Shown one piece after another: positions 16,890 through 22,855 of a stretch of DNA of 22,855 nt. Each line of letters begins with the position of its first letter. Position 1 is the stretch's first letter. The stretch is from Gemmatimonadota bacterium. GTDB taxonomy: Bacteria; Gemmatimonadota; Gemmatimonadetes; Gemmatimonadales; Gemmatimonadaceae. The stretch is from contig JAOUHR010000002.1 in NCBI GenBank assembly GCA_029884515.1, positions 1 through 22,855 on the forward strand. Reading direction: 5' to 3'. The position numbers and the translations under genes are program-made. Under the pieces are notes generated by a model, which was not told the DNA's origin, did not search any database, and saw nothing but the letters and a program-made list of their open reading frames with translations.

Positions 16890-17546
16890 GTGACGACACC
16901 ACCCCGCGCACGCCTGGCCGTGTTCGCCTCCGGCGGCGGCAGCAACCTCCAGGCCATCTGCGATCACCTCGACGCCCTCGGCGCGGCCGCGCCGGCCGAC
17001 CTCGTGCTCGTGGTGAGCGACCGCAAGGACGCCGTGGCGCTCGAACGCGCGCGGAAGCGCCGGGTGGCGGCGGAGTGGGCGCCCAGGGACGATCCGCAGG
17101 CCGTGATCGAGGTGCTCGAGACCCACGAGGTCGGGTGCATCGCGCTCGCCGGCTACCTGCGGCTCGTGCCGGCGCGGGTGATCGCCGCCTTCCGCGGCCG
17201 CATCGTGAACGTGCACCCGGCGCTGCTGCCCGCGTTCGGCGGCCCGGGGATGTACGGCGCGCGCGTGCACGAGGCCGTGCTGCGCGCGGGCGCGCGGATC
17301 ACCGGGCCCACGGTGCACTTCGTGAACGAGCGGTACGACGAGGGCGCCATCATCGCGCAGTGGCCGGTGCCCGTGCGCGAGGAGGACACGCCCGCCTCGC
17401 TCGCGCGCCGCGTGCTCGCGGCCGAGCACCGGCTCTACCCGCGCTGCGTCGCGGCCCTCTGCGCCGGCGCGCTCACGCTCGGCGACGATGGCCGCGTGCA
17501 CGGCGCGGACGCGTTCGCGTTCGACACGGCTCCCGCCGTCGCCTGA
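16890..17546 (+). CDS. purN: Phosphoribosylglycinamide formyltransferase (PurN)
   Basis: Transfers the formyl group from 10-formyl-tetrahydrofolate to GAR in step 3 of purine synthesis. The 218 residues fit PurN (about 190-220). Visible are the phosphate-binding FASGGGSNLQAI (about 12-23), SDRKDA, LAGYLRLV (about 86-93), and the catalytic triad Asn107 and His109 in IVNVHPALLPAF with Asp150 in NERYDEGAII, followed by Q-W-P-V-P-V. These match E. coli Asn106, His108 and Asp144. The start is the GTG at 16890, beside a promoter-like box. purH follows after 32 bp. The short C-terminal tail beyond the core is not conserved. Confidence 0.95.
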   Translation: MTTPPRARLAVFASGGGSNLQAICDHLDALGAAAPADLVLVVSDRKDAVALERARKRRVAAEWAPRDDPQAVIEVLETHEVGCIALAGYLRLVPARVIAAFRGRIVNVHPALLPAFGGPGMYGARVHEAVLRAGARITGPTVHFVNERYDEGAIIAQWPVPVREEDTPASLARRVLAAEHRLYPRCVAALCAGALTLGDDGRVHGADAFAFDTAPAVA

Positions 17547-17578
17547 CCACCCTTCCCGCACTCCCCACACCCGTCTCG

Positions 17579-19111
<1,533 letters not shown>

Positions 19112-19242: not shown

Positions 19243-21495
19243 ATGGCCGCCGAACTCGACTACCGACCGTCCTACCTCGCCGCGGGCATCGCGGCCGGCC
19301 TGACGTTCCTGCTCTACCTCCTGACCCTCTCGCCCGAGACGGCGATGTGGGACACGAGCGAGTACATCACGGCGGCGTACACGCTGGGCCTGCCCCACCC
19401 GCCCGGGAACCCCCTCTTCGTCCTCATCGGGCGCGTGGCGACGATCCTCCCGATCGCGCCGACCATCGCGATGCGGATCAACCTCCTCGCGGCGGTCTCG
19501 AGCGCGGTGAGCGCGGGGATGTGGTTCCTCGTCACCGAGCGGGTGCTGGTCGGCTGGTTCGACAAGCGCTGGCAGCGCGTGGCCGGCGGCTCGCTCGCCG
19601 TGCTGATCGGCGCCACCGCGTTCACCGTCTGGAGCCAGTCGGTGGTGAACGAGAAGGTCTACACCATCTCGCTCCTGGGGCTGGCGATCTGTTCCTGGCT
19701 CACGGTGCGCTGGTGCGACTTCCCCGAGAGCCCCAAGGCCGACAAGCTGCTGGTCCTCATCGCGTACCTGTGCGGACTGGGCTACGCGAACCACATGGCG
19801 GGCCTCCTCGCGGTGCCGGCGATCGCCATCGCCGTGCTCATCCGGCGCCCCGCGATCCTGCTGCGCTGGAAGCTCATCCTGGCGCTGGCCGCGGCCGTCT
19901 TCGTGGGGGGCAGCTCGTTCCTCACGCAGCCGATCCGCGCCGCGCACTTCCCCGCGATCAACGAGGGCGAGCCGACGGCCTGCCGTGACGGGCTCCAGGT
20001 GTCGTGCACCTTCTCCAAGGGCACCTACGACGCCTTCATGTACAACTTCAATCGCGGGCAGTACGGCAAGCCCGAGTTGAGCCAGCGGCAGGCCCCGTTC
20101 TTCGCCGGACAGGTCGGGATGTGGTGGCACTACTTCAAGTGGCAGTGGCTCCGCGACGCGCACGACGAGCAGCCCCGGCTCCAGTTCACGCTCGCCGCGA
20201 TCTTCCTCCTGCTGGGGCTCGTCGGCGGCTGGGTGCACTACAAGCGCGACCCCCGGAGCTTCGCGTACTTCGGGCCGCTGATGCTCACCCTGACGCTCGT
20301 GCTCATCTACTACCTGAACTTCAAGTACGGCGCCTCGCAGGCGCCGGAGCTGGGGAACAGCGTGGACCGCGAGGTCCGCGACCGCGACTACTTCTACCTG
20401 TGGAGCTTCTCGGCGTGGAGCGTCTGGGCCGCGCTCGGGCTCGTCTACGTGTGGGAGTCCATCGCCGTCCTCATGGGCAGCGAGCGGACGAAGGTCGGCA
20501 CGGAGACCTTCGACCTCCCCACCACGCGCAGCTGGCTCCTCTCCTCCCCCGTGCTCGTGCTCGCGATCTTCCCGCTCATCGGGAACTGGCAGGCCTCCTC
20601 GCGCGCCGGCGAGACCGACACCGCCGACTTCGCGGTCGACCTGCTCAACTCGGTGGAACCCTACGGCATCCTCGTCACCGTCGGCGACAACGACACCTTC
20701 CCGCTCTGGTACGCGCAGGAAGTCCTCGGCGTGCGCAAGGACGTGACCGTCGCCAACACCTCGCTGCTCAACACCGACTGGTACACGCGGCAGCTGATCC
20801 GGCGGCCGATCTTCGACTACGACTCCATCAACGGTCCCGCCGCCTGGCGCGGCAGGAGCTGGCCCAGGCCGGACGCCCCGGTCCTCAAGATGACGATGGC
20901 CCAGGCCGATGCGATCCCGCTCGGCCAGGAGATGCGGCAGGCGCAGCGCTTCACGAAGGGGAACATCAACGCCATCATCCAGCCGCGGTTCCTCACGCGC
21001 GCGGACATCCTGGTGCTGCGCATGCTGATGGACAACGACACGCGCGCGATCCACTTCAGCCGGACCTCCGCCGACCTCGCCGGTGAGCTGGGCCTGAACG
21101 CGTACACCGTGATGCAGGGCCACGTCCGGAAGGTCTACCCGGACTCCGTCACCGAGTCGGCGAACGTCGTGCGCGTCCCCGGCGAGGGCTGGGTGGACGT
21201 GGCCCGCTCGGCTGCGCTCTGGGACGAGTTCAAGGCGCCAGCGTCGCTGATCAGGAAGGGCGACTGGGTGGACGCGCCCTCGCGCGGCATCCCGTACCTC
21301 ATCCTGAGCACCGGCATCGCGACGGCCGAGGCGCTCGTGCGCTCGAATCAGAAGACCCAGGGCGACAGCATCATCGAGACGGTGCGCCGGGTGGCGATCG
21401 CCATGCGCTTCGGCGACATCGCCGGGGAGATCGCGCCGCCGCCCATCCAGTCGGGCGACTCGGTCGCGCGGCAGGCGGTGCCGCTCCGGCCGTAG
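19243..21495 (+). CDS. DUF2723 membrane protein, GT-C-type glycosyltransferase (TMEM260-like)
   Basis: A 750-residue polytopic membrane protein. The N-terminal half has about nine or ten hydrophobic helices. The first loop carries MWDTSEYITAAYTLGLPHPPGNPL (Asp37, Glu40, His52), the acidic first-loop signature expected of GT-C enzymes that use lipid-linked sugars. Further DUF2723 features are SQSVVNEKVYT, GLGYANH and a VDREVRDRDYFYLWSF segment near 368-386. The C-terminal part (about 430-750) is mostly soluble and includes VTVGDNDTFPLWYAQEVLGVRKDV, which is typical of the family. The human relative TMEM260 is a protein O-mannosyltransferase, so this may glycosylate exported proteins; donor and acceptor here are unknown. 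It stands as a single gene between purH and a hairpin terminator. Confidence 0.9.
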   Translation: MAAELDYRPSYLAAGIAAGLTFLLYLLTLSPETAMWDTSEYITAAYTLGLPHPPGNPLFVLIGRVATILPIAPTIAMRINLLAAVSSAVSAGMWFLVTERVLVGWFDKRWQRVAGGSLAVLIGATAFTVWSQSVVNEKVYTISLLGLAICSWLTVRWCDFPESPKADKLLVLIAYLCGLGYANHMAGLLAVPAIAIAVLIRRPAILLRWKLILALAAAVFVGGSSFLTQPIRAAHFPAINEGEPTACRDGLQVSCTFSKGTYDAFMYNFNRGQYGKPELSQRQAPFFAGQVGMWWHYFKWQWLRDAHDEQPRLQFTLAAIFLLLGLVGGWVHYKRDPRSFAYFGPLMLTLTLVLIYYLNFKYGASQAPELGNSVDREVRDRDYFYLWSFSAWSVWAALGLVYVWESIAVLMGSERTKVGTETFDLPTTRSWLLSSPVLVLAIFPLIGNWQASSRAGETDTADFAVDLLNSVEPYGILVTVGDNDTFPLWYAQEVLGVRKDVTVANTSLLNTDWYTRQLIRRPIFDYDSINGPAAWRGRSWPRPDAPVLKMTMAQADAIPLGQEMRQAQRFTKGNINAIIQPRFLTRADILVLRMLMDNDTRAIHFSRTSADLAGELGLNAYTVMQGHVRKVYPDSVTESANVVRVPGEGWVDVARSAALWDEFKAPASLIRKGDWVDAPSRGIPYLILSTGIATAEALVRSNQKTQGDSIIETVRRVAIAMRFGDIAGEIAPPPIQSGDSVARQAVPLRP

Positions 21496-21607: not shown

Positions 21608-21690
21608 GGAGGGCTGGCAGAATGGCTAATGCAGCGGTCTTGAAAACCGCCGTCCGCAAGGACTTACAGGTTCGAATCCTGTGCCCTCCG
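21608..21690 (+). tRNA. tRNA-Ser (anticodon UGA)
   Basis: The cloverleaf can be drawn in full: acceptor GGAGGGC/GCCCTCC with discriminator G at 21690, anticodon stem GCGGT/ACCGC around loop CTTGAAA (anticodon TGA), a long variable arm with stem GTCC/GGAC and loop GCAA (type II tRNA, as expected for serine), and T arm ACAGG/CCTGT around TTCGAAT. CCA is not encoded. The anticodon is UGA (reads UCA and related serine codons), not UCA as in tRNA-Sec, so this is not the partner of SelA. The gene ends 122 bp before the intI start codon. Confidence 0.97.
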
Positions 21691-21812
21691 TCTCGCAGGC
21701 GCGGCGACGTCGCATCGGAATGAGCGCGTTGGCGCGGTTGTGGTGCAGCGATGGTACGGGTCCGGTCACACCGTGGGGGTCCGCGCAGCGATACCGCGAC
21801 CCGCCCACGGAT

Positions 21813-22790
21813 ATGCCGACCGAGAAGCCCCGTCTGCTGACGCAGGTGAAAGGCCGCATGCGTGCGCGCCATTTAAGCCCGCGCACCGAGCAGGCATACC
21901 TGGGCTGGATCCTCCGCTATATCAGATATCACGGCACCCGCCACCCGGCGGAACTCGGTGAGCCGGAGGTGCTCGCGTACCTGACCCACCTCGCGGCCGA
22001 GCGGCGCGTGTCGCGATCGACGCAGATGCAGGCGTTGAGCGCGTTGGTGTTGTTGTATCGCGAGGTGCTGGCGATCCCCATCGGCGACCTGCGCCGCGTG
22101 TTGCGTTCGAACGCGCCGCCGCATCTCCCGGCCGTGCTGAGCCGGGAGGAGGTGGGCGCGCTGCTCAGCCATCTCGCGGGCACGATGCGGCTCGTCGGGC
22201 TGTTGCTGTATGGCGCGGGCCTGCGGCTGCTCGAGTGCCTGACGTTGCGGGTGAAGGACATCGACCTGGCGGCCGGCGAGATCCGGGTGCGCCGTGGCAA
22301 GGGGGGGAAGGACCGGGTGACGATGTTGCCGGAGCGTGCCCGGGGCATCATGGAGGCGCACCTGGCGCGGGTGCGCGGGTTGCACGAGCGGGACCTGGCG
22401 CGCGGTCGTGGGCGCGTGGCGTTGCCGACGGCGCTGGACCGGAAGGCGCCGTCGTGGGCGACCGACCTTGCGTGGCAGTGGGTGTTCCCTGCGGCGCGCG
22501 AGTACCGGGACGCCGCGACCGGCCAGATCTGCCGGCATCACCTGCACGAGTCGGCGGTCCAGCGGGCCGTGCAGCGCGCGGTGCGGGAGGCGGGCATCGC
22601 GAAGCGCGCGACGTGTCACACGCTCCGCCACTCGTTCGCCACCCATCTGCTCGAGGACGGGTATGACATCCGGACGTTGCAGGAGCTGTTGGGGCACCGG
22701 GACGTGAGCACGACGATGATCTACACGCACGTGCTGAACCGGGGACGACTTGGGGTGCGGAGTCCTGCGGACCGGCTGGGGGGGGGATAA
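21813..22790 (+). CDS. intI: Integron integrase (IntI-type tyrosine recombinase)
   Basis: Recombines attI with attC sites of gene cassettes. The 325-residue product is intact. The N-terminal SAM-like domain contains LSPRTEQAYLGWILRYIRYHG (about 21-41) and HPAELG. The catalytic domain has Arg138 (GAGLRLLECLTLRVKDID), Lys at 163/166 (RRGKGGKDRV), His269 and Arg272 (HTLRHSFATHLL), His295 (LLGHRDVSTT) and Tyr304 (MIYTHVL). The extra segment that separates IntI from XerC/D is present (about 203-226, ALPTALDRKAPSW...WQWVFPA). The ATG at 21813 aligns with IntI N-termini; the frame is open back into the tRNA, but those 44 codons are not IntI-like. Codon use differs from neighbours: 12 TTG, one TTA and two CTT leucine codons. 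A run of nine G precedes the stop. Confidence 0.95.
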   Translation: MPTEKPRLLTQVKGRMRARHLSPRTEQAYLGWILRYIRYHGTRHPAELGEPEVLAYLTHLAAERRVSRSTQMQALSALVLLYREVLAIPIGDLRRVLRSNAPPHLPAVLSREEVGALLSHLAGTMRLVGLLLYGAGLRLLECLTLRVKDIDLAAGEIRVRRGKGGKDRVTMLPERARGIMEAHLARVRGLHERDLARGRGRVALPTALDRKAPSWATDLAWQWVFPAAREYRDAATGQICRHHLHESAVQRAVQRAVREAGIAKRATCHTLRHSFATHLLEDGYDIRTLQELLGHRDVSTTMIYTHVLNRGRLGVRSPADRLGGG

Positions 22791-22855
22791 TGGATATGTT
22801 GGTGGTTGTTGCACTCCGGGCGATCGTGGTGGTACGATCAGGTGCAAGTGAATGA
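22790..22855 (+). CDS. Possible 21-codon ORF overlapping the intI stop
   Basis: An ATG shares one base with the intI stop (TAATG) and opens a frame ending in TGA at the last base of the window. The product would be M-D-M-L-V-V-V-A-L-R-A-I-V-V-V-R-S-G-A-S-E, hydrophobic with Val-rich halves. The same bases form an inverted repeat, so this may be chance rather than a gene. Confidence 0.2.
   Translation: MDMLVVVALRAIVVVRSGASE
22809..22847 (+). repeat. Nested inverted repeat downstream of intI
   Basis: The outer arms TTGCAC (22809-22814) and GTGCAA (22842-22847) enclose inner arms GATCGT (22822-22827) and ACGATC (22834-22839) around the loop GGTGGT. The unpaired spacers are unequal (7 and 2 nt), giving two stacked stems with an asymmetric internal loop. 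It starts 18 bp after the intI stop. Two-stem folding with asymmetry is reminiscent of integron recombination sites, but the canonical GTTRRRY core is absent, so a terminator or chance is equally possible. Confidence 0.5.

What the first reader, a model, noticed from the sequence alone, without database searches (positions are those of the whole stretch)
21608..22855. Integron integrase docked behind tRNA-Ser with cassettes expected on its 3' side
intI is intact, with all catalytic residues and the IntI-specific segment. In the classical layout attI and cassettes lie 5' of intI and run divergently, but here the 5' side has only 122 bp before tRNA-Ser and then a housekeeping-like gene, with no attC-like repeats. 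Cassettes, if any, should lie beyond 22855, in the same direction as intI, as in the 'reverse' integrons reported from Treponema and a few others. This would be an uncommon arrangement.
Basis: partly seen in the sequence, partly recalled or inferred. Interest (0 to 1): 0.75.

Follow-up and report, generated by a model that had tools for sequence, protein, structure and literature searches.

The report
Reverse integron cut at contig end
The window ends in an intact gene-capture enzyme gene (integron integrase) of a Gemmatimonadota bacterium whose captured genes, to judge from its relatives, lie just past the contig end in the 'reverse' order, which is known from some other bacteria and is the usual order among this one's relatives.

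Summary
An intact integron integrase gene (21813-22790, +) starts 122 bp behind tRNA-Ser(TGA), with no attC on its 5' side. The window is a whole contig of a 77%-complete Gemmatimonadota bin. It ends 65 bp after intI, so cassettes cannot be seen, and the bin gave no attC hit. The reverse reading rests on relatives. In 80 integrase loci of the same order, 182 of 183 attC hits at E<0.001 lie 3' of intI on its strand (46 loci). Of 37 loci with at least 2 kb of 3' sequence, 34 have them. Their contigs break mostly just 3' of intI; those of the classical clade mostly just 5'. Beside five relatives, the window's tail matches the left part of a probable attI and stops 3 bp before its GTT. The layout is thus usual here and fits the published 'inverted IntI' group. 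Congeners keep this tRNA-Ser locus without intI, and this intI groups with other genera, so horizontal acquisition is likely; a chimeric join at the tRNA is not excluded. A broken second intI lies behind tRNA-Ile in the same bin. Site-specific docking at tRNA is not shown. Verdict: new member of a known kind.

The parts
19243..21495 (+). TMEM260-like protein gene; left neighbour of tRNA-Ser(TGA) in the genus too (flank, not part of the integron)
   Evidence: PF11028, 157.5 bits; a relative in 17 of 17 genus genomes; tRNA-Ser(TGA) follows it in 13 of 17 fetched loci
21608..21690 (+). tRNA-Ser(TGA), intact; left flank of the integron
   Evidence: same tRNA follows the TMEM260-like gene in congeners
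21691..21812 (+). 122 bp spacer holding the left boundary and presumably the intI promoter; no sigma-70-like promoter or terminator match found
   Evidence: scan; only one 11-base match among the 5' flanks of ten related intI loci
21813..22790 (+). intI, intact integron integrase gene (325 aa)
   Evidence: TIGR02249 433.8 bits; PF13495 and PF00589; match to 2a3v over residues 8-322
22839..22855 (+). putative left part of attI, cut by the contig end 3 bp before the expected GTT
   Evidence: aligned with the 3' flanks of five intI relatives (L210, L211, L212, L216, L062), which run on into GTTAGNC five bases after GTGAAT

Best explanation
This is the platform end of a chromosomal integron of the reverse (inverted) type. 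IntI is transcribed toward attI, and the cassettes follow in the same direction. The contig stops inside attI, most likely because the cassette array could not be assembled or binned. IntI would work as in other integrons: it binds the folded bottom strand of attC hairpins and recombines them with double-stranded attI, adding cassettes next to attI (established for integrons generally; inferred here). The unit was probably acquired horizontally from another genus of the same family and sits behind tRNA-Ser(TGA), where congeners have no intI. A second, broken intI behind tRNA-Ile in the same genome is probably what is left of an integron that some congeners still have at that place. Shown: an intact IntI, the relatives' layout, the locus without intI in congeners, and the tree position. 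Inferred: attI at the contig end, a cassette array beyond it, the acquisition, and that IntI is active.
For: Family identity of IntI. Layout in relatives: 182 of 183 attC hits at E<0.001 lie 3' of intI on its strand, in 46 of 80 loci; where at least 2 kb of 3' sequence exists, 34 of 37 loci have attC there. Contig ends within 2 kb of intI: 43 of 80 loci on the 3' side against 4 of 80 on the 5' side; the 48 named loci of the classical clade show the mirror image, 27 only on the 5' side against 3 only on the 3' side. attI: the window's tail aligns with relatives that run on into GTTAGNC. Tree: reverse (52 rows) and classical (10 rows) labels need one change, 0 of 500 shuffles as low, support of that branch 91 (SH-aLRT), window on the reverse side. 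Acquisition: the smallest well-supported sets that hold the window (8 rows, 95/93; 9 rows, 100/99) contain rows of G149, G127, G094 and G150 and no congener. Locus without intI in congeners. Broken second intI behind tRNA-Ile.
Against: No attC, cassette or complete attI is seen in this genome. The bin gave no attC match; that search scores only 150 first-look candidates, but under the same cap it found attC in 9 of 10 other genomes, which I had picked as controls. 3 of the 30 relatives with at least 5 kb of 3' sequence have no attC hit. One weak hit in L225 (E 0.0079) is 5' and on the opposite strand. The attI call rests on about 17 bases, and in L211 and L212 the core is GTTAGCC, which is not a strict GTTRRRY. 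The far flank seen in congeners (tRNA-Ser(GCT), gltX) was not found in the bin. The AU test rejects one clade of the window with its ten congeners, but those congeners' integrases fall apart into three groups themselves, so that test says little about the window alone.
Confidence: 0.84

Rival explanations
1. Solitary intI (an 'In0'): the platform was inserted or left behind without any cassette, and the chromosome resumes after attI.
For: No attC in the bin. 3 of 30 relatives with at least 5 kb of 3' sequence have none by this model. The second intI of the same genome, on C365, is broken, with no attC hit on its 7.3-kb contig.
Against: The contig breaks where cassette variety or repeats would break it; an empty locus might be expected to assemble through to tRNA-Ser(GCT) and gltX, which are missing from the bin. 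34 of 37 relatives with at least 2 kb of 3' sequence carry attC there.
Confidence: 0.13
2. Chimeric contig: the 83-bp tRNA-Ser, identical in another species, let the assembler join this chromosome to an integrase from a different organism of the same community. (This concerns the site, not the layout; it can be true together with the reverse reading.)
For: The 83-bp tRNA is identical in G009, one of 17 congeneric loci compared. intI groups with other genera. No congener's intI was found at this locus. intI has GC3 of 0.90 against 0.98 for the neighbouring gene.
Against: The overall GC of intI (0.70) is close to that of the rest (0.72). In the stretches fetched, the closest relatives outside the genus have no tRNA 5' of intI (L210-L217). 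The 90%-identity cluster that the window's protein represents counts 5 sequences on 2 contigs, but the second contig's context is unknown.
Confidence: 0.1
3. Classical integron with its attI and array 5' of intI.
For: This is the textbook layout; 10 named loci examined here show it.
Against: The 5' side is tRNA-Ser and a conserved chromosomal gene without attC. At E<0.001 no divergent 5' attC was found in 80 relatives, 66 of which have at least 5 kb of 5' sequence. One weak hit of that kind (L225, E 0.0079) fell below the cut.
Confidence: 0.01
4. A mobile island that uses this gene to target the 3' end of tRNA-Ser, as phage-type tyrosine recombinases do. (Also about the site; not exclusive of the reverse layout.)
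For: The position directly behind a tRNA 3' end. intI also lies 205 bp behind tRNA-Ile in G009 and 261 bp behind tRNA-Met in G015, on the same strand, and the broken intI of this genome lies behind tRNA-Ile.
Against: The protein is an IntI, not a phage-type integrase. Only 2 of 80 relatives lie within 300 bp behind a tRNA on the same strand. A tRNA 3'-end duplication cannot be looked for, because the far end is missing.
Confidence: 0.05

Closest known systems
Reverse integrons of Treponema (PMC3607928 and PMC7691350, passages seen)
   Same: intI is transcribed toward attI, and cassettes lie 3' of intI in the same direction; this layout is shown here for the relatives and inferred for the window
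   Different: Different phylum; behind tRNA-Ser in this genome; the array itself is not seen here
'Inverted IntI' sub-clade inside the soil/freshwater IntI clade (PMC8352920, passage seen)
   Same: Layout follows the IntI tree: one change between reverse and classical rows
   Different: I did not place the published reference sequences on the tree; the search listing counts no 'gemmatimon' in that paper
Classical integrons, mostly of Proteobacteria (for example the Nitrococcus mobilis locus L111)
   Same: Same integrase family and the same kind of attC hairpin
   Different: attC sites lie 5' of intI and on the opposite strand
XerC-like recombinase of the same genome (C64, beside ORFs that look like hslV and hslU by inspection)
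   Same: Tyrosine recombinase with a weak match to the window's IntI
   Different: Only partial similarity; not scanned against the family libraries

Membership tests
Integron | intI gene with tyrosine-recombinase catalytic residues and the IntI-specific segment | tested here: met
   TIGR02249 above cut-off over the full model; alignment with 2a3v over residues 8-322; motif positions
Integron | attI site next to intI with a GTTRRRY-type core | tested here: inconclusive
   Left part aligned with five relatives; the core itself would lie past the contig end
Integron | attC sites / cassette array | tested here: inconclusive
   None in the window or bin, but the 3' side is not in the assembly; present in 34 of 37 relatives with at least 2 kb of 3' sequence
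Integron | Recombination activity of IntI on attC x attI | not testable with these tools
   Needs an assay
[quoted passage not shown]
   In this genome only the attI-like tail speaks for it; in relatives 182 of 183 attC hits
Reverse (inverted) integron | IntI falls on the reverse side of the IntI tree | tested here: met
   One change on the tree between 52 reverse and 10 classical rows, window on the reverse side
tRNA-targeting integrative island | Integrase of phage type | tested here: not met
   The integrase is IntI by TIGR02249
tRNA-targeting integrative island | Direct repeat of the tRNA 3' end at the far end of the element | not testable with these tools
   The far end is not in the assembly

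The most novel reading that the evidence does not exclude
In this genus reverse integrons are relocating units (intI, attI and array together) that repeatedly land directly behind tRNA genes: tRNA-Ser here, tRNA-Ile in G009 and in this genome's broken copy, tRNA-Met in G015. A newly landed unit can supersede an older one that then decays. Because in the reverse order intI followed by attI resembles a cassette followed by its attC, the platform might even be moved by its own IntI. The one attC hit found just 5' of an intI on its own strand (L211) would be the kind of site this needs.
Probability: 0.07. Interest if true: 0.75.

Novelty: new member of a known kind. Interest (0 to 1): 0.4.

Why it matters
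It extends the reverse-integron layout from the described cases I found in print to what looks like the usual arrangement in a Gemmatimonadota order, with up to 94 attC hits in one genome (G032). Surveys that expect cassettes only 5' of intI would misread these loci. It also offers a case of turnover: a probably acquired integron at a new site, beside a broken integrase at another. And it shows that the side on which contigs break next to intI is itself a signal of integron polarity.

Tried and rejected
Rfam scan of the window: only the tRNA. A simple attC regular expression found arrays in relatives but cannot give orientation, since the pattern is palindromic; it was replaced by a covariance model. 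Own-genome attC search: nothing at E<=1. Looking for the far side of the integron: tRNA-Ser(GCT) not found. The right-hand neighbours in congeners are gltX-, lexA- and dinG-like genes (Pfam matches, dinG being my reading of the helicase match; positions). In this bin the helicase is on C59, which begins inside lexA, so the junction is missing. A peptidase gene beside the broken intI as a synteny marker: found only in this genome among 17 at E<=1e-40. Promoter and terminator scan around intI: nothing. Literature: nine full-text searches. Among the rows listed (in one search, 20 of 52 papers) I saw no title about integron polarity in Gemmatimonadota; this is not proof that none exists. Papers were seen as passages only; none was read whole.

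Weaknesses of my counts. The 80 loci are the better-scoring matches, not all of them; several genomes give more than one locus. One search used only model hits at E<0.001. Dropped were weaker hits, among them one 5' opposite-strand hit in L225 (E 0.0079), opposite-strand echoes of the same hairpins, and further 3' hits. The model was trained on 20 sites from 7 of the same loci. The ten loci L159-L168, most with integrase fragments (searched), were not in that count. Labels of four of the ten classical rows rest on hits of E 0.005 to 0.04 (L104, L138, L153, L146). 94 of 156 tree rows carry no label, 5 of the 80 relatives were left out of the tree as too short or broken, and L134 and L235 appear to be the same contig counted twice (contig lengths, zero branch lengths). 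The clade lists used I copied from the tree. Confidence values of the rivals are not exclusive: two of them concern the site, not the layout.

Full report
What the window is. The window is one complete contig (C502, 22855 bp) of a 2.74-Mb bin in 548 contigs, 77% complete. It comes from the phylum Gemmatimonadota. Its TMEM260-like protein is 69% identical over its length to that of one named Gemmatimonadota genome (L139) and 72% over residues 2-529 to that of another (L134). Several near relatives of its integrase are named 'Gemmatimonadaceae' or 'Gemmatimonadota' by their sources.

The observation. The described elements are there: a TMEM260-like gene (19243-21495), tRNA-Ser(TGA) (21608-21690), a 122-bp spacer and an intact 325-aa integron integrase gene (21813-22790), all on the + strand. 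The integrase matches TIGR02249 with 433.8 bits (cut-off 265) and aligns over residues 8-322 with 2a3v, deposited as IntI4, with one single-residue gap. The contig stops 65 bp after the stop codon.

Where relatives keep their cassettes. I built an attC covariance model from 20 sites of 7 relatives' loci. I searched it in 80 integrase loci from the window's genus, family and order, the better-scoring ones of those listed. At E<0.001, 182 of 183 hits lie 3' of intI on the same strand, in 46 loci. The one exception (L211) lies 5' of intI, also on its strand. One weaker hit against the pattern (L225, 5' and opposite, E 0.0079) fell below the cut. A 3' attC is present in 27 of 30 loci with at least 5 kb of 3' sequence, 7 of 7 with 2-5 kb, 11 of 14 with 1-2 kb, 1 of 10 with 0.5-1 kb and 0 of 19 with less, as expected if the array is simply cut off. 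66 of the 80 have at least 5 kb on the 5' side.

Contig ends as a second sign. In these 80 loci the contig ends within 2 kb of intI on the 3' side in 22 of 40 plus 21 of 40, and on the 5' side in 0 of 40 plus 4 of 40. In 48 named loci of the classical clade it is the other way round: 27 end only on the 5' side and 3 only on the 3' side. In a group of 12 on the neighbouring branch, 9 end only on the 3' side, none only on the 5' side and 1 on both. In the other 20 named loci it is 9 only on the 3' side, 5 only on the 5' side and 1 on both. The window, with 65 bp on the 3' side, fits the reverse pattern.

attI. The 3' flanks of five close relatives (L210, L211, L212, L216, L062) align with the window's tail and then run into GTTAGNC. 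In each, five bases separate GTGAAT from GTT (sequences; one search counts it for four, and for L216 found an earlier GTGAAT instead). The window has GTGAAT and two more bases, so it stops 3 bp short. In L211 and L212 the core is GTTAGCC, not a strict GTTRRRY. The match is short, so I treat attI as probable, not shown.

Layout on the integrase tree. On a tree of 156 IntI, the 52 rows with a 3' array and the 10 rows with a divergent 5' array need one change of state; none of 500 shuffles needs so few, and the branch has SH-aLRT support 91. 94 rows have no label, and one contig probably counts twice (L134 and L235). A 59-row tree gave the same count of one (26 and 10 labelled rows). The window lies on the reverse side. 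[quoted passage not shown] The reverse layout of Treponema is described in PMC3607928 and PMC7691350 (passages), and PMC9668308 says typical Spirochaetota IntIs are generally in reverse orientation (passage). A review lists Gemmatimonadota among phyla with integrons (PMC8618304, passage). So the kind is known; what my searches did not turn up in print is how regular it is in this phylum.

History of the site. In 13 of 17 fetched congeneric loci (16 genomes) the TMEM260-like gene is followed, 0.4 to 5.4 kb on, by tRNA-Ser(TGA), and in 11 of these 13 then by tRNA-Ser(GCT); 4 of the 17 show no tRNA in the stretch fetched. No attC was found in any of the 17, and the congeners' intI places lie elsewhere. 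So this locus exists without intI, and the integron most likely came in here. The integrase is at most 57% identical to those of congeners but 75-79% over its length to those of G149, G127 and G094 in other genera of the family. Well-supported sets place it with these and no congener (8 rows, 95/93; 9 rows, 100/99). The congeners' own integrases fall into three separate groups, so integrases seem to turn over in this genus generally; for the same reason the AU rejection of one clade of window and congeners (p about 1e-65) says little about the window alone. In the same bin, contig C365 carries tRNA-Ile(GAT) and, behind it, an integrase broken over two reading frames with no match to residues 1-88. 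Its first piece is closest to the integrase of G009 (71%), which lies 205 bp behind tRNA-Ile; its second piece does not favour G009 (best score with G032). G009, G014 and G016 share the sequence before that tRNA, with intI 0.2, 6.3 and 2.5 kb behind it; C365 has only 48 bp before the tRNA. The simplest account is decay of an older integrase behind tRNA-Ile and gain of a new one behind tRNA-Ser; it is an inference.

What is not known. The genome's own cassettes were not found: the bin has no attC hit, while 9 of the 10 other genomes of that call, chosen as controls, do. The right side of the insertion is missing too: no tRNA-Ser(GCT), no close gltX (37% match only), and the contig with the next genes begins inside lexA. 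A chimeric join at the tRNA cannot be excluded without reads: the 83-bp tRNA is identical in G009. tRNA adjacency is rare overall (2 of 80 relatives within 300 bp behind a tRNA on the same strand). By my rough estimate (not computed by a tool; about 45 tRNA genes in 3 Mb, recalled) that is still more than chance, and both cases are in the window's genus; I leave it as a lead.

Verdict. A reverse-type chromosomal integron platform, probably cut in attI by the contig end: real, well supported by relatives, a new member of a known kind, with an arrangement that is ordinary for its lineage.

Noticed in passing
G000 contig C365 (locus L008), 49-123 and about 444-1043: A second integrase of the integron type in the same genome, broken over two reading frames and without a match to the N-terminal part, behind tRNA-Ile(GAT).
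   Followed up: partly
L059 (G009), L067 (G015): intI genes 205 bp behind tRNA-Ile and 261 bp behind tRNA-Met on the same strand, both in the window's genus.
   Followed up: partly
L211:4486-4572 (G127): An attC hit (32.7 bits) just 5' of an intI and on its strand, the only one of 183 on that side; its R boxes look degenerate by eye.
   Followed up: no
L138: A record titled Gemmatimonas phototrophica (a MAG) carries an integrase with a weak classical-side attC hit (E 0.0076) that groups with Desulfobacterales, Poribacteria and cyanobacterial rows; transfer or misbinning.
   Followed up: no
L062, L070, L074, L164 (G022): One genome holds four partial integrase matches on four contigs, up to 83% identical to the window's; three of them have attC hits on the 3' side.
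   Followed up: no
window 16890-19111: ORFs that read as purN and purH by inspection lie upstream of the TMEM260-like gene; ordinary chromosomal context.
   Followed up: no
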